DNA from: Candidatus Levyibacteriota bacterium
GTDB lineage: Bacteria; Patescibacteriota; Microgenomatia; Levybacterales; UBA12049
Direction of reading: 5' to 3'
DNA: 40,579 bases
Assembly: GCA_016204425.1 (NCBI GenBank)
Contig: JACQKR010000036.1
Span: 1-40,579 of the forward strand
In this document: one piece after another, positions 1,254 through 24,541 of the stretch
Numbering within the stretch: the first letter of the stretch is position 1
Layout: every line of letters begins with the position of its first letter
Program-made: the position numbers and the translations under genes
The notes under the pieces: generated by a model
What the model was told of the DNA's origin: nothing
Database searches by the model: none
The model's input: only the letters and a program-made list of their open reading frames with translations

Positions 1254-2642
1254 ATGCAAAGTCTTGATGTTAATTACCAGTTTGGTTTCCATGATGATAT
1301 AACGCCATTTTTTTCAACGCCAAAAGGCTTATCCGAAAATATCGTACGGGAGATATCGGGCATGAAACAGGAGCCGGAATGGATGCTTCAGAAAAGACTT
1401 GCAGCCCTGAATATATTTTATGCAAAACAAATGCCACCGTGGGGCGGTGATCTTTCTCGTATAGATTTTGACAATATTTATTACTATGTGAAGCCGACAG
1501 ACAAGCAGGGAAGAACCTGGGACGATGTACCCAGTGAAATAAAAAATACGTTTGAAAAAATTGGTATTCCGGAAGCGGAGCGAAAGTTCCTCTCAGGCGT
1601 TGGTGCGCAGTATGATTCGGAGGTCGTCTATCACAGTATCTCAAAAATGTTAGAAAAAAAAGGGGTTATTTTTGTCGATACCGATACGGCAGTTAAAAAA
1701 TATCCGGAGCTGGTAAAGCAATATTTCGGCACCATAATTCCGGCTGCAGATAATAAGTTTGCAGCGCTAAACACCGCTACCTGGTCAGGAGGATCGTTTA
1801 TCTACGTTCCAAAAGGTGTCCGGGTCGAGCTTCCCTTGCAAGCATATTTCAGAATCAATGCCAAAAACATGGGTCAGTTTGAGCGCACGCTTATTATTGC
1901 AGATGAGGGGTCATATGTGCATTATGTAGAAGGTTGTACCGCGCCTATTTTTACCACGGATTCTCTTCATGCTGCCGTGGTTGAAATTGTCGTCAAGAAA
2001 GGAGCCCGGGTACGATACACGACAATTCAAAACTGGAGCAAAAATGTCTATAACTTAGTCACGAAACGGATGTTTGTTGAGGAGGAAGGAATCGGCGAGT
2101 GGATTGATGGAAATCTCGGCAGTCAACTGACAATGAAGTATCCGTCTGTGTATTTGAAAGGAAGAAAGGCACGAGGAGAAGTACTATCTCTTGCATTTGC
2201 AGGGGCGGGACAGCACCAAGATGCGGGGGGGAAAGCTATTCATCTTGCTCCTGAAACAAGCTCTGCTATTACTTCAAAATCAGTGTGTAAAGATGGTGGC
2301 CGGACATCATATAGAGGACTCCTCAAAGTGATAAAGGGAGCAGAGAATTGCAAGTCGACCGTACGGTGTGATGCACTCATTCTTGATTCACTCAGCCGTT
2401 CCGATACCTATCCGACAATGGATATTGGTGAGGAGCGGGTGACGATCGGGCATGAAGCATCTGTTTCGAGAATTGGAGAAGAGCAGCTCTTTTATTTTCA
2501 ATCCCGTGGCATGTCGCAGCAGCAAGCAGAAGTGATGATCGTGAACGGATTTATGGAACCGATTGTGAAAGAGCTTCCTATGGAGTATGCGGTTGAGCTC
2601 AATCGACTAATACAGTTAGAAATGACTGGCTCGGTTGGTTAG
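1254..2642 (+). CDS. sufB: Fe-S cluster assembly protein SufB
   Basis: SufB-like sequence ([42 protein letters not shown]). Confidence 0.96.
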
Positions 2643-2681
2643 TGAGTCGGGGTCCTAATATCTGCCACCCCTTCTTAAATA

Positions 2682-3251
2682 ATGAAAAAGATAGAGTTAG
2701 TACTTAAAAAAAACGAAGAAAAAATTCTGCCTGTCATTTGGATTGATGACGATGAGACTGAAATACATCTTGCTGCACGGTTAGTCGGAGATGGAGCGAA
2801 ACTGACCGTTCTCGGACTCTTTTTTGCGACTGAAAATCGAGCGGTTGTCTTCACAACAGATGTAATGCATGAAGGGAAGCATACAACGAGCCTCACAAGG
2901 ATTCGTGGTGTTTTCAAAAATAGGTCGTCGTTCAACAATGACGGTATTGTGCGGATAAGAAAAGGCGCCAAGAACGCGAACGGATTCTTCGATTCAAAAG
3001 TACTGCTTTTTGATGATGCGAAAGGAAGAAGTGTGCCATCTTTGGAGATTGATGAGAACGAGGTAAAAGCAGGACACGCCTCAACAATCGGAAGGCCTGA
3101 CGCGCTGCAGCTTCTCTATCTTCGCTCACGAGGGTTGAGCGAGGAGGAGGCAGAAAGCCTCATCGTTACAGGGTTTTTTGATCAAATCAAACGTTTATTG
3201 CCGGAAAAAGAAAGAAGAGCCGTTGAAAAGAAGCTTGGGGGCTCCGCATGA
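2682..3251 (+). CDS. sufD: Short SufD-like Fe-S assembly scaffold protein
   Basis: SufB/D C-terminal core: VKAGHASTIGRPDALQLLYLRSRGLSEEEAESLIVTGFFD; only 189 aa. Confidence 0.85.
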   Translation: MKKIELVLKKNEEKILPVIWIDDDETEIHLAARLVGDGAKLTVLGLFFATENRAVVFTTDVMHEGKHTTSLTRIRGVFKNRSSFNNDGIVRIRKGAKNANGFFDSKVLLFDDAKGRSVPSLEIDENEVKAGHASTIGRPDALQLLYLRSRGLSEEEAESLIVTGFFDQIKRLLPEKERRAVEKKLGGSA

Positions 3252-16997: not shown

Positions 16998-18212
16998 ATG
17001 TTACTTTATAATTCTCAAACGCGGAAAAAAGAATTGTTTGTCCCACTGGATAAAAAAACGGTAAAGATATATGTCTGTGGCATTACCCCGTATGACACAA
17101 CGCATCTCGGACACGCATTTACCTATACGATATTTGATGTATTTCTCCGGTATGTAGCCTATAAGGGTTTCGATGTTCAGTACGTACAAAATGTTACCGA
17201 TATCGATGATGATATTCTCAAGAAAGCGAAAGAAGTTGGAAGAGATTGGAGAGAGCTTGGTGATTACTGGACCAATCGATTTCTTTCCGACATGCGGTCG
17301 TTGAACATCCTGCCACCCACGCATTATGTCAAGGCGACAGGATCAATTGGGAAAATTATTGAGATTACAAAAGGGCTCATTACGAAAGAGTTTGCATATG
17401 AGAACGACGGCAACGTCTATTTCGATTATAAAAAATTTAAGTCATATGGAGCATTGAGTAAGTTGACCGAGAAACAGATGCTTCTTATTGCAAGAGAGCG
17501 CGGGGGAAATCCGGATGATACTTTAAGAAAACATCCGCTTGATTTTCTTCTCTGGCAAAAATCCAAAAAAGATGAGCCGTTCTGGGAGAGTCCATGGGGC
17601 CTGCCTGCCGCCCGCCTGCCGGCAGGGCAGGGCAGGCAGGGAAAAGGTCGTCCCGGCTGGCATATCGAGTGTTCAGCGATGATTCATCAATATCTCGGCG
17701 AGCAAATAGACATCCATGGTGGAGGAAGAGACCTTATCTTCCCGCATCATGAAAGCGAAATTGCACAGTCTGAAAGTTACACGGGTAAGCGTCCGTTTGT
17801 CGGATATTGGATGCATATTGCAATGCTTTTGCATGAGGGTGAAAAGATGTCAAAGTCCCTTGGAAATCTGGTTATGGTAAAAGATTTATTGAAAAAGTAC
17901 TCAGCAAATGCGATCAGATGGATGTTTTTAACACATCACTATCGGGTACCGTGGGAATTTCATGAGGAAGAAATAAAGGAAGCAGAGAAAAATATTGTTG
18001 CAATAAAAACAGCATTAGAAGTAAAAACAAACGAAGGACGAAAGAATCTCTATTGCATAAAAAAGTTTGAATTTTTCATGGAGGATGACATCAATGCTCC
18101 TGATGCATTACACGTTCTTAGGAAAATAGCGAAAAGGATTACTGAGGATAATGAAGTTCATTTGCAAAAATCTCTTCGGGGGCTCGTTGAAATTTTGGGA
18201 TTTCAATTTTAA
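16998..18212 (+). CDS. cysS: Cysteinyl-tRNA synthetase
   Basis: VCGITPYDTTHLGHA, GRPGWHIECSAM, HGGGRDLIFPHHESE, KMSKSLGN; contains an in-frame palindromic insertion. Confidence 0.96.
   Translation: MLLYNSQTRKKELFVPLDKKTVKIYVCGITPYDTTHLGHAFTYTIFDVFLRYVAYKGFDVQYVQNVTDIDDDILKKAKEVGRDWRELGDYWTNRFLSDMRSLNILPPTHYVKATGSIGKIIEITKGLITKEFAYENDGNVYFDYKKFKSYGALSKLTEKQMLLIARERGGNPDDTLRKHPLDFLLWQKSKKDEPFWESPWGLPAARLPAGQGRQGKGRPGWHIECSAMIHQYLGEQIDIHGGGRDLIFPHHESEIAQSESYTGKRPFVGYWMHIAMLLHEGEKMSKSLGNLVMVKDLLKKYSANAIRWMFLTHHYRVPWEFHEEEIKEAEKNIVAIKTALEVKTNEGRKNLYCIKKFEFFMEDDINAPDALHVLRKIAKRITEDNEVHLQKSLRGLVEILGFQF
17600..17641. repeat. GC-rich palindromic element inside cysS
   Basis: CCTGCCTGCCGCCCGCCTGCCGGCAGGGCAGGGCAGGCAGGG, identical over 42 bp to 24262-24303 in cca. 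Confidence 0.95.
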
Positions 18213-18296: not shown

Positions 18297-18455
18297 ATGG
18301 AAAGAGTAGTAGCAAGAATAGCAAAAGATCCTCGCAACCAAGATCCAGTTCAGCAATTTGCTGTTGAAAGCGCATTGCGAATGCTTTTTGATGCAGGTGT
18401 TGTAGATCCAGGTGCAGACGCAATTATTGCTGCTTTATCACGCAAGCTCGAATAG
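18297..18455 (+). CDS. N-terminal fragment of the DGR target gene (frame broken)
   Basis: MERVVARIAKDPRNQDPVQQFAVESALRMLFDAGVVDPGADAIIAALSRKLE*; downstream ORF continues in another frame, open from about 18392. Confidence 0.55.
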   Translation: MERVVARIAKDPRNQDPVQQFAVESALRMLFDAGVVDPGADAIIAALSRKLE

Positions 18456-18670
18456 AAGCTTCTGAACGACCACGAGAAGCAGTACTGCCTTCAGCAGACC
18501 AGTTAGTCCATTCTGAGAGAGAAGCACTTGGAGCATTTTTCGGAAAAGACATTGCTGTTCCAGAGCCTCCTAGTGGTTTACTCACTACTCTTGAGAGATT
18601 AGGTGAGCTCAATATTGCTGGCTTTGATCCTCACTATCTTCCCAAGCAATCCTTAAAAGAACGAGATAAA

Positions 18671-19213
18671 TTGCCGGGTTGGAAAGTAAAACCAGAGCAT
18701 TGGTTCTGGGAACAAATAAAAGATGGAAATCTCCCTCAAGATGCAGCAACGCTTAAAGAGGGCTGGTACCTCGTTGATAGGAGAGGAAAGCCAAATTACC
18801 AAGATGATAAGCAAATGTATGAGGATGATTACCTTGCTCCGTTCATGGAGAATCTTAGAGAAACAGGTAGAGTTCAAAAATACCGTTTTGTTCCTGATAA
18901 TTCTCGCTTTGGTGCCTCAGCAGATGAGATTGAACAGGTTATACTTCCAGAGTTGGCTAGTATTTTGGGATCCGAAGGCATTGTAAGAAGTAAAAGAGAA
19001 ATTGAATTCAACGTCTTAGGGAATATGCACTATCCAGAATGGGGAGAAACAAATACATGGGAATGGTACGCAGATAAATTCGAGGACGATAGCCGTCTCA
19101 TCGGTGGTCACTCTGGCGGTGGTGGTCTGGCGCATGTCAGCTACGATTGGTCTGACAACCGGCATGACGGGGTCGGTTTTGCTCCTCTGGTAGAATTTCC
19201 CTCAGAAGCTTGA
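18671..19213 (+). CDS. DGR target (variable) protein, C-terminal part carrying the VR
   Basis: ORF (open without start from about 18392) ending FEDDSRLIGGHSGGGGLAHVSYDWSDNRHDGVGFAPLVEFPSEA, resembling DGR C-type-lectin-fold ends. Confidence 0.8.
   Translation: MPGWKVKPEHWFWEQIKDGNLPQDAATLKEGWYLVDRRGKPNYQDDKQMYEDDYLAPFMENLRETGRVQKYRFVPDNSRFGASADEIEQVILPELASILGSEGIVRSKREIEFNVLGNMHYPEWGETNTWEWYADKFEDDSRLIGGHSGGGGLAHVSYDWSDNRHDGVGFAPLVEFPSEA
19078..19193 (+). repeat. DGR variable repeat (VR)
   Basis: 116 bp ungapped match to 19534-19649; 14 mismatches, 12 at TR adenines. Confidence 0.92.
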
Positions 19214-19338
19214 TACCTTGGTTGCTTTTCTCCTGGCATATCCTTGGAATTTGATGCTTGAAAACTTGGATAAATTTTCCTACACTTTTCTTGATGAGGT
19301 TCATGCATTCTCTAGCTACGGCTTAGAATCGCCGCATC

Positions 19339-19408
19339 TTTTATTGGGTACAGATTTCCGAGTTTTTATCTCCGCTGCGGAGATAAAAAGAGTACTTCTC
19401 CAATAAAA
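19339..19408. other. Extended inverted repeat / cruciform-forming hairpin between VR and TR
   Basis: Inner arms TTTTTATCTCCGC / GCGGAGATAAAAA (19363-19389); outer arms TTTTATTGG / CCAATAAAA. Confidence 0.8.
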
Positions 19409-19533
19409 CAGAGAGGGAAGAGAACTACGTGCCTTAAGCTTAGTGCTCGTATGTAGAGAGCAGAATAAAATACAGGAAAGATAGTTGTTAACAGAACCTA
19501 AATTTCCAGTGATGCAAGAAGGCTTAGGCATTT

Positions 19534-19649
19534 ATTCGAGGACGATAACCGTCTCATCGGTGGTAACTCTGACAATGGTGGTCTGGCGGATGTCAACTAC
19601 AATTGGTCTGACAACCGGAATGACGATATCGGTTTTGATCCTCTGATAG
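19534..19649 (+). repeat. DGR template repeat (TR)
   Basis: Adenine-rich counterpart of VR with AAC/AAT codons (GATAACCGT, GGTAACTCT, GACAAT, GTCAACTACAAT). Confidence 0.92.
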
Positions 19650-19653
19650 TCTC

Positions 19654-19941
19654 TCACATCTTTAGTGTTTTTATCCAGCCACCAAGCATTTTGCCGATCT
19701 CTAAAAGTTGCTCAACGAGTTGCTGGTACTTTTTATTGTCAAGGCATTTTGTTTCGAAAGCGAGTCTGAGTAGTATTTTGAGAAGATCAAGCTTTATGCT
19801 TACTTTTTGTAAGACAGGGAGCTTTTGTTCACGTGGAAGATACCCCGCTAGGATGATATTTTCAAAAATTTCTAGACTAACTTGATCTATTTTTTGACCG
19901 AGCGTGTATCTTTTGCCTTTTGGAAAAAGAGAAAGGAGCAT
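19654..19941 (-). CDS. avd: Avd-like DGR accessory protein (four-helix bundle)
   Basis: FPKGKRYTLGQKIDQVSLEIFENIILAGY...LPVLQKVSIKLDLLKILLRLAFETKCLDNKKYQQLVEQLLEIGKMLGGWIKTLK. Confidence 0.88.
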   Translation of the reverse strand: MLLSLFPKGKRYTLGQKIDQVSLEIFENIILAGYLPREQKLPVLQKVSIKLDLLKILLRLAFETKCLDNKKYQQLVEQLLEIGKMLGGWIKTLKM

Positions 19942-20016
19942 TTTATACGGTATCTAGGCAACCAGGACATTTGTTTGACAGAGCAGCAAAAGTATAGTGT
20001 ATGAATACCTGAAGAT

Positions 20017-20430
20017 ATGGCAGTGCAGGAAACTCGTCCGGGTGGTCACAAGGATATTACGATGCTTTCACGGGCAGCTCTCTTGAAGGAGACATCTGAC
20101 TCAGGACTTGAGCCTGAAGAAAAAGCTCACAACAGATTTCTTCATGACCTAGCGACCAATAATAATGTTGTTGGAGTCGCGTATCTCCCGCAAGGGACAC
20201 AAGGAAGGGGTTCTCGGCTTGGCGTTCTCCTAAGAGAAGTTGGCGTTGGTGAGGGAAAAGAAGCGGTTCCACCTCCTGTTGCTGTTGGGAAATTAACGAA
20301 AAGTTTAAAAAGAAGAAGTCCTCCAGTCTCATATATCATCGTTGGTAACCATTCAGTAGAGGATATTGTCGCACAACAGAGTGCTGGAGCAATTAACGGT
20401 ACGCAGCCAAGAGTTATCCTGTTTTCGTAA
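20017..20430 (+). CDS. Hypothetical protein
   Basis: 137-aa ORF, convergent with yqeY. Confidence 0.5.
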   Translation: MAVQETRPGGHKDITMLSRAALLKETSDSGLEPEEKAHNRFLHDLATNNNVVGVAYLPQGTQGRGSRLGVLLREVGVGEGKEAVPPPVAVGKLTKSLKRRSPPVSYIIVGNHSVEDIVAQQSAGAINGTQPRVILFS

Positions 20431-22709: not shown

Positions 22710-22875
22710 GTCATCCTGAATCCTGAACTAAATTCAGGACAAGTTTTATTTCAGGATCCCTTGAATGTTGTAAAGACCTGCCTGCCCTGCCTGCCGGCAG
22801 GCAGGCGGCAAGGCAGGGATTCTGAATCAAGCTGAAAGTCCTGCGGCACAACGTGCGGCATGGGTTCAGAATGAC
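22710..22875. repeat. MITE-like composite element with imperfect terminal inverted repeats
   Basis: GTCATCCTGAATC...GGTTCAGAATGAC ends, with a nested GC-rich palindrome. Confidence 0.65.
22777..22818. repeat. GC-rich palindromic element (intergenic copy)
   Basis: CCTGCCTGCCCTGCCTGCCGGCAGGCAGGCGGCAAGGCAGGG, related to the copies in cysS and cca. Confidence 0.85.
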
Positions 22876-23044: not shown

Positions 23045-24541
23045 TTATGCAAGTTTCTGCACTCTCTGTAGTAGGTATTCTTTTGTATTTTTTGCGAGAT
23101 CCTCGTCAACTTCTTCAAACAATTTTTGCAGAATTTCTCCAATTTTAGGTCCCGGTTTGATCTGGAGTTGCTTCATAATATCATTGCCGTCGATTGCCAA
23201 ATCGTTGATAGAGAAGGGTAATGGGGCAAGCTGCTCTTCAATCCGTTTTTTGAATAATTTTAATCTCCAGCTTTCCGCTGTTTGCGTTCCACCACCTAAC
23301 CGGTCTCCAATACGAAGATCCATCATGTCTTTAACACTCTCAACACCGACCCGACGAATAAATCGTCTCACCGCCGCATCGGTTATTTTTTCATCCACAG
23401 TGAACATGTGCCATCGGACGAGTGTCACGATTTTTGTTTTATCTTTTTTTGAGAATCGTAGCCGATCACTTATCTCAGCTGCAATTCTGGCTCCTTCGAT
23501 CTCATGATTGTAGAAGATGACAAGCCCCTCTTTATCAGTTGCTGCAACTTTTGGTTTCCCGATATCATGGATAAGCGTTGCAAACCGAACAATCGGGTCC
23601 GTTGAGGGACAGTATTTCAAGGACAGGACATTGTGAGTAAATACGTCTTCTTTGTGGTGTCTGCCGGGACGCTCCTGAGAAACGCCGATTCCTTCGAGAA
23701 GCGCAGGAAGAATGTATTCCAAGAGATTGGTATTTTTCAAAAGCATGACTCCTTCATAGGCAAATTCACTGCTGAGGATTTTCATCAGTTCATCCCGAAT
23801 CCGCTCTTTTGAAATGTCGTTTAATAATGCGGCATCATGCATAATTTCTTGGAGCGTTTCAGCTTCGATTGAAAAACCAAGTTGCGTCGCTAGCCGGATC
23901 GCACGCATCAAGCGAAGCGCATCTTCCTTAAAGCGTTTGCTTGCGTCCCCTACTGCGCGTATTATTTTGTTTTGTATATCTTTCTGTCCGCCATATGGAT
24001 CAATGAGCTGAAAATGCCCGTTATTGTCATTGCGAGCCGAAGGCGTGGCAATCTCTGGGATTGCTTCGTCATTCAGCGAAGCAGAATTCCTCGCAATGAC
24101 AGACTGATTGATTTGTTTAGCATTTAACTGTAAAGCGATTGCATTTATAGTAAAATCCCGACGGGCCAAATCTTCCTCAACCGTTTTTCCCCAAGCGATC
24201 GTTTCCGGGTGTCTTCTGTCTTTGTATCCGTGTTCTGTACGAAATGTTGTCACTTCAACAACCTGCCTGCCGCCCGCCTGCCGGCAGGGCAGGGCAGGCA
24301 GGGCGTGCTCTCCGTCACTTTCAATAGGGATGCCGACAGTGCCGAACGTATTGTCATAGAAGCCGTCTGGAAAAAGCTTGAGAATGTCCTGTGGAGTGGC
24401 ATTTGTCGTGAAATCCCAATCGTTCACGGATTTTTCCAAAAGCAGGTCCCGAACACAGCCACCGACAAGATAGATTTCAAATCCAGCGTTTTGGAAGGTT
24501 TCATAAATGGAGCGAATACTCTGAGGAATTTTTCCTATCAT
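23045..24541 (-). CDS. cca: CCA-adding enzyme / poly(A) polymerase family with HD domain
   Basis: YLVGGCVRDLLL, WDFTTNATPQDILKLFPDG, RRDFTINAIALQL, LIHDIGKP; carries two in-frame palindromic insertions. Confidence 0.93.
   Translation of the reverse strand: MIGKIPQSIRSIYETFQNAGFEIYLVGGCVRDLLLEKSVNDWDFTTNATPQDILKLFPDGFYDNTFGTVGIPIESDGEHALPALPCRQAGGRQVVEVTTFRTEHGYKDRRHPETIAWGKTVEEDLARRDFTINAIALQLNAKQINQSVIARNSASLNDEAIPEIATPSARNDNNGHFQLIDPYGGQKDIQNKIIRAVGDASKRFKEDALRLMRAIRLATQLGFSIEAETLQEIMHDAALLNDISKERIRDELMKILSSEFAYEGVMLLKNTNLLEYILPALLEGIGVSQERPGRHHKEDVFTHNVLSLKYCPSTDPIVRFATLIHDIGKPKVAATDKEGLVIFYNHEIEGARIAAEISDRLRFSKKDKTKIVTLVRWHMFTVDEKITDAAVRRFIRRVGVESVKDMMDLRIGDRLGGGTQTAESWRLKLFKKRIEEQLAPLPFSINDLAIDGNDIMKQLQIKPGPKIGEILQKLFEEVDEDLAKNTKEYLLQRVQKLA
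24026..24100. repeat. Palindromic element GTCATTGCGAG...CTCGCAATGAC inside cca
   Basis: Perfect 11-bp inverted ends; 75 bp = 25 codons in frame. Confidence 0.93.
24262..24303. repeat. GC-rich palindromic element inside cca
   Basis: 42 bp identical to the cysS element at 17600-17641. Confidence 0.95.

What the first reader, a model, noticed from the sequence alone, without database searches (positions are those of the whole stretch)
18297..19941. RT-less DGR cassette with Avd gene inverted and abutting the TR
The order is target-VR, hairpin, TR, then an Avd-like ORF on the opposite strand whose stop codon lies 4 bp past the TR end. No reverse transcriptase ORF (YxDD-type, several hundred aa) is recognisable in the six-frame track. 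Canonical DGRs carry the RT close to the TR. Either the RT acts in trans from another locus, or this is a relic cassette, or the architecture is a minimal satellite-like DGR.
Basis: partly seen in the sequence, partly recalled or inferred. Interest (0 to 1): 0.75.

Follow-up and report, generated by a model that had tools for sequence, protein, structure and literature searches.

The report
Broken hypermutation cassette lacking its enzyme
This is the decaying remnant of a bacterial gene-hypermutation system (a diversity-generating retroelement) that has lost its reverse transcriptase; its intact relatives in related bacteria nearly all carry a slippery DNA repeat at the start of a gene that, in the one well-studied system of this kind, is essential, which suggests that hypermutation in this lineage can be switched on and off.

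Summary
VR 19080-19193 and TR 19536-19649 differ at 14 sites, 12 of them TR adenines (P=4e-7). A bAvd gene (Pfam PF22296, NCBIfam Avd equivalog) lies on the other strand with its stop 4 nt past the TR. No RT exists in the window or in the 64-contig, 73%-complete genome.

The inverted, abutting Avd is not unusual. It is the normal layout here: target, TR, reversed bAvd, RT, seen in 37 divergent-type loci. Only the missing RT is odd, and no other bAvd locus fetched from these genomes with an uncut contig lacks one. The window's bAvd has also lost its start codon and first helix, and its target gene is frameshifted. Best reading: a recent relic. Trans supply is not excluded. A second cassette in this genome (contig C29) is cut off exactly where its RT should begin, but its TR leader differs.

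Side result, probably the more important one: 30 of 37 intact divergent loci carry a short tandem repeat inside the bAvd start, against 0 of 14 of other layouts. All 8 (CA)7 tracts in 73 family genomes sit there, and the ATG is in frame in only 4-6 of 30. Hypermutation in this lineage looks phase-variable. No reads were available to prove slippage.

The parts
18297..18455 (+). N-terminal part of the target gene (frame 0), ends at TAG 18453-18455
   Evidence: translation
18458..19213 (+). conserved body of the target gene in a different frame; no ATG/GTG/TTG in frame before 18671, so the gene is frameshifted
   Evidence: aligns at 47-61% identity with intact targets of G025, G022 and L031; ORF list
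19080..19193 (+). variable repeat (VR) at the C-terminus of the target
   Evidence: mismatch pattern
19363..19389 (+). 12-bp hairpin between VR and TR; a hairpin lies at the same place in G022
   Evidence: folds, alignment
19396..19536 (+). TR leader matching Rfam RT-16 RNA over its full length, 31.4 bits (below the gathering score of 50); the same match lies immediately 5' of the TR in G022 (44.3 bits) and G030 (36.6 bits)
19536..19649 (+). template repeat (TR)
19654..19941 (-). bAvd accessory gene, truncated at the N-terminus (profile positions 1-17 missing; native start, repeat tract and most of helix 1 absent)
19942..20016 (.). short junction where relatives have the bAvd start, a simple repeat and about 1 kb of RT; only 75 nt here before the next ORF
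   Evidence: comparison with G022 and G025
20017..20430 (+). flanking 137-aa ORF of unknown family (right border of the cassette)
   Evidence: no Pfam or NCBIfam match

Best explanation
This is a recently inactivated DGR. It once had the layout normal for this group: target gene with VR, an RT-16-like leader RNA and TR, bAvd on the opposite strand ending at the TR, and a divergently transcribed RT. A deletion removed the RT, the shared bAvd/RT start region and the N-terminal part of bAvd, and the target gene carries a frameshift. While it was active, RT and Avd copied the TR RNA into cDNA mutated at adenines, which replaced the VR; the A-specific VR/TR differences are the fossil record of that. 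Shown: repeats, mutation pattern, truncation, frameshift, no RT in the assembly. Inferred: that the RT was once here, the order of events, and present inactivity.
For: Of the family and class bAvd loci fetched with enough contig, all but the window have an RT nearby; the other exceptions (G022:C45, own C29, L154) are cut by contig ends at the bAvd-RT gap. The two closest relatives of the window's bAvd (73% and 71% identical) are G022:C45 and G025. The G025 locus, whose two contigs overlap, is complete with RT. In the window the bAvd profile match starts at position 17-18, the native start region is gone, and the next gene starts 75 nt away. The target needs two reading frames and the conserved body has no start codon. 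Avd and RT are both essential in the reconstituted BPP-1 DGR (PMC12875486).
Against: VR and TR show little decay: only one clear non-A difference (T>G at 19627). So either the loss is recent or the VR is still being rewritten from elsewhere. The genome is 73% complete, so an RT elsewhere cannot be excluded. The frameshift and the junction come from one assembly with no reads checked.
Confidence: 0.72

Rival explanations
1. The cassette is still active, served in trans by the RT (and intact Avd) of a second DGR in the same genome, most likely the one on contig C29.
For: Own contig C29 (3 kb) holds a second cassette: VR 2004-2135, TR 2506-2637 with 15 of 15 differences at TR adenines, and a bAvd frame open to the contig end, exactly where an RT should start. 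VR/TR of the window are well preserved. Trans diversification of incomplete DGRs has been inferred in Thiohalocapsa PB-PSB1 (PMC10907252).
Against: The C29 leader does not match RT-16 while the window's does, and the C29 bAvd is only 45% identical to the window's. In relatives with several cassettes (G074 with six, G065 and G050 with two) each complete one has its own RT, which argues for pairing in cis. The frameshifted target would make the work useless.
Confidence: 0.15
2. Strain mixture or assembly error: some cells carry the complete locus and the assembly merged or kept a deleted variant.
For: Contigs in this group break at the bAvd-RT gap (G022:C45 ends inside a (GT)n tract; own C29 and L154 end there too). 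In PB-PSB1, long reads revealed variants with intact RT at loci that looked incomplete (PMC10907252).
Against: Here the contig continues for 20 kb past the junction, the junction contains no simple repeat, and the target carries an independent frameshift.
Confidence: 0.1
3. A minimal, satellite-like DGR type that naturally lacks an RT.
For: Target, leader, TR and a bAvd are kept together and the repeats are intact.
Against: No second uncut example among the bAvd loci fetched from family and class genomes. The bAvd is truncated and the target frameshifted, which fits decay, not a streamlined element.
Confidence: 0.03

Closest known systems
Divergent-bAvd DGRs of related small-genome (CPR-type) bacteria, e.g. 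G025:C29/C7 and G022:C45
   Same: Same order and strands, homologous target (51-61%), bAvd (71-73%), leader and TR; bAvd stop next to the TR
   Different: They keep the bAvd start with a simple repeat and, where the contig allows, the RT; the window lost RT, repeat and bAvd start, and its target is frameshifted
BPP-1 (Bordetella phage) DGR
   Same: Adenine-specific TR-to-VR differences; Avd-family accessory protein next to the TR; VR at the C-terminus of the target
   Different: BPP-1 has avd-TR-brt on one strand with the RT present (PMC12875486); here avd is reversed and the RT is absent
Incomplete DGR loci of Thiohalocapsa PB-PSB1 (PMC10907252)
   Same: Loci missing RT or TR while a VR/target remains; genome with several DGRs
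   Different: There transposons/MITEs degraded the loci and population reads show diversification; here no reads and no transposon at the junction
Rfam RF03019 RT-16 RNA
   Same: Full-length match directly 5' of the TR in the window, G022 and G030
   Different: All three scores (31.4, 44.3, 36.6 bits) are below the gathering score of 50

Membership tests
Diversity-generating retroelement | VR/TR pair with differences confined to TR adenines | tested here: met
   12 of 14 differences at TR A, none with A in VR, P = 3.7e-7
Diversity-generating retroelement | VR at the C-terminal end of a protein-coding target | tested here: met
   VR 19080-19193 inside a frame ending at 19213; homologous targets in G025, G022 and L031
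Diversity-generating retroelement | DGR-type reverse transcriptase in the element | tested here: not met
   no RVT_1 and no DGR-RT profile match in window or genome; the genome is 73% complete
Diversity-generating retroelement | accessory gene such as avd | tested here: met
   PF22296 63.6 bits; NCBIfam DivGenRetAVD 81.4 against 80; N-terminal 17 positions missing
Diversity-generating retroelement | intact, expressible target gene | tested here: not met
   frameshift between 18390 and 18455; no start codon for the conserved body
Diversity-generating retroelement | C-type-lectin fold of the variable protein | not tested
Diversity-generating retroelement | active mutagenic retrohoming | not testable with these tools
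   needs population reads or an assay
RT-16 RNA (RF03019) | covariance-model score at or above gathering | tested here: inconclusive
   31.4 bits, full length, E = 0.03; gathering 50; same position in two relatives at 44.3 and 36.6 bits

The most novel reading that the evidence does not exclude
The DGR type from which this cassette descends is phase-variable: slippage in a short tandem repeat just after the bAvd start codon puts bAvd in or out of frame and so switches hypermutation on and off in single cells. The window is a copy that lost switch and RT. The repeat unit differs between loci ((CA)n, (CT)n, pentamers, C10) but its place does not.
Probability: 0.65. Interest if true: 0.82.

Novelty: new variant of a known kind. 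Interest (0 to 1): 0.55.

Why it matters
The cassette itself is a modest finding: a clear case of DGR decay, and a warning that RT-less cassettes should be checked for truncation and for contig ends before being called trans-acting. What comparison brought up matters more. In these bacteria an accessory gene that is essential in the model DGR appears to sit behind a contingency repeat. That would link two classic diversity mechanisms, slippage phase variation and targeted hypermutation, and offers a testable answer to how a cell limits a machine that keeps rewriting its own genes. I found no paper describing it in the open library searched. The label 'new variant' refers to this repeat-switched layout; the window itself is a broken member of it.

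Tried and rejected
Looked for a hidden RT: Pfam RVT_1 and a seven-sequence DGR-RT profile over the whole genome gave nothing. Phage records: no DNA match. Viral contigs: only a 34% relative of the target. Own contig C42, a third bAvd hit at 41 bits, has no repeats and sits between unrelated genes; taken as a 23S-IVP-like four-helix protein. Considered programmed -1 frameshifting of the target: no slippery heptamer seen by eye near 18443-18455, so rejected. Considered that repeats are simply common in these genomes: (CA)7 occurs 8 times in 73 genomes, always at a DGR; (CA)8 in 373 class genomes is less exclusive (11 of about 19 tracts at DGRs) and (CT)8 less still (about 9 of about 36).

Full report
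What is in the window. A 116-nt direct repeat (88%) at 19078-19193 and 19534-19649 shows the DGR signature: of 14 differences, 12 fall on adenines of the second copy (TR), giving G or C in the first copy (VR), and none has A on the VR side. All but one fall on first or second codon positions. The T>G at 19627 is a clear non-A difference. At 19589 the TR has G where the TRs of both closest relatives have A, so that mismatch may be a later change in the TR. Between the repeats lies a 12-bp hairpin (19363-19389), then a stretch matching Rfam RT-16 RNA over its full length, ending at the TR start (19396-19536, 31.4 bits, below the gathering score). The same match lies directly 5' of the TR in G022 (44.3 bits) and G030 (36.6 bits). 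On the opposite strand, stop codon 4 nt past the TR, is a bAvd gene.

No RT. Pfam RVT_1 and a profile of seven DGR RTs from the same family find nothing in the 778-kb, 64-contig, 73%-complete genome. RVT_1 rang in 3 of 14 control genomes and in 19 of 73 family genomes, so the search works.

The layout is ordinary for the lineage. In relatives with an RT the order is target-VR, TR, bAvd reversed, RT, with bAvd and RT starting back to back. One search analysed 37 such divergent loci from the family and class. In 33 loci (32 of these plus L154, whose contig ends before the RT) the TR edge lies between -33 and +53 nt of the bAvd stop, mostly 0-30. G025 looked split over two contigs (target on C29, TR-bAvd-RT on C7), but the contig ends overlap by about 100 nt, so it is a complete locus. 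G022:C45 has the window's exact order, and its contig ends inside a (GT)n tract right before the expected RT. So the inverted, abutting Avd is no novelty of this window. Most loci of the other layouts have bAvd and RT on the same strand.

Signs of decay. (a) Only 75 nt separate the bAvd ORF from the next gene, where relatives have the bAvd start, a repeat tract and about 1 kb of RT. (b) The bAvd match begins at profile position 17-18; the native start and most of helix 1 are absent. (c) The target is frameshifted: the ATG-started N-terminus (18297) stops at 18455, while the conserved body (LPSADQL... onwards, 47-61% identical to intact homologues) lies in another frame without a start codon. 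In the reconstituted BPP-1 system RT, Avd and TR are each required (PMC12875486). The VR/TR pair shows little decay, so inactivation would be recent.

Could an RT act in trans? The genome holds a second cassette on the 3-kb contig C29: VR 2004-2135, TR 2506-2637 (15 of 15 differences at TR adenines) and a bAvd frame that runs off the contig end just where an RT should begin. An RT may therefore exist outside the assembly. Against its use here: the C29 leader does not match RT-16, the two bAvds are 45% identical, and relatives with several cassettes (six complete in G074, two in G050 and G065) keep one RT per cassette. Incomplete DGRs with inferred trans activity, and loci where intact variants coexist with disrupted ones, are documented in Thiohalocapsa PB-PSB1 (PMC10907252), so both rivals stay open.

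A switch in the intact relatives. In 30 of the 37 divergent loci a simple repeat lies at the divergent start: (CA)n, (CT/AG)n, a pentamer 7-9 times, or C10. None of 14 loci with other layouts has one near the bAvd or RT start (Fisher P = 9e-8), and the rest of the same loci holds 18 such repeats in 359 kb. In all 30 an ATG lies 3-50 nt before the tract on the bAvd strand, and in 29 no in-frame start lies between tract and bAvd body, so the tract sits in the bAvd reading frame. That ATG is in frame in 4 loci clearly (L079, L085, L119, L129) and perhaps 2 more (L151, L152), but in 5 of 5 repeat-free divergent loci read by eye (L045, L118, L123, L125, L140; P = 0.0014 with 6 of 30). The other two repeat-free loci (L134, L143) were not used in that count. 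The RT start usually lies downstream of the tract, so the RT frame is mostly unaffected; in five (CT)n loci (L080, L082, L120, L151, L153) no RT start lies between tract and RT body, so one tract might set both frames. Every (CA)7 tract in 73 family genomes (8 of 8) is at such a locus. In 373 class genomes (CA)8 is at a DGR in 11 of about 19 tracts, and (CT)8 in about 9 of about 36. Viral contigs agree in part: same-strand DGRs have none (0 of 71, 0 of 65), while a few divergent ones carry G11, C8 or (GA)18.

Reading of the switch. Different units at one place, in the coding start of an accessory gene that is essential in the model system, with many consensus sequences out of frame, is the pattern of a contingency locus. 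Limits: loci share ancestry, tract lengths come from consensus assemblies, no reads were seen, and the tract may also act on the RT promoter. The window itself has no such tract; it would have been lost with the RT.

Verdict. A real DGR cassette, best explained as a recent relic of a lineage-typical DGR; trans supply is possible but weakly supported. The remarkable element is the repeat in the intact relatives, which the window led to but does not carry.

Noticed in passing
L043, L075, L077-L085, L115-L117, L119, L120, L129, L132, L136, L138, L141, L144-L147, L149-L153 (bAvd/RT divergent starts): Simple repeats of differing unit sit inside the bAvd start of 30 of 37 divergent DGR loci, with the ATG mostly out of frame: likely phase variation of hypermutation.
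   Followed up: yes
L080, L082, L120, L151, L153: In (CT)n-type loci no in-frame RT start lies between tract and RT body, so one tract could set the frame of both bAvd and RT.
   Followed up: partly
L040 (own contig C29), 1410-3011: Second DGR cassette in the same genome, next to a transposase-like ORF (171-1214, minus); the contig ends where its RT should begin.
   Followed up: partly
L115-L120 (G074): One 1.1-Mb genome with six complete DGR loci, each with its own RT.
   Followed up: no
L123: The RT is split into two ORFs (2335-3084 and 2023-2331), perhaps another decaying DGR.
   Followed up: no
window 17615-17626, 22790-22801, 24277-24288: GC-rich palindrome CCTGCCGGCAGG at three places, one inside the cysS reading frame; about 0.2 matches expected by chance.
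   Followed up: no
L031 9059-10531: Two tandem paralogues of the target in a Roizmanbacteria contig, followed by a resolvase-like recombinase; no TR or RT recognised nearby.
   Followed up: no
L121 (G127): Tandem duplication of a bAvd with a partial RT in one DGR locus.
   Followed up: no
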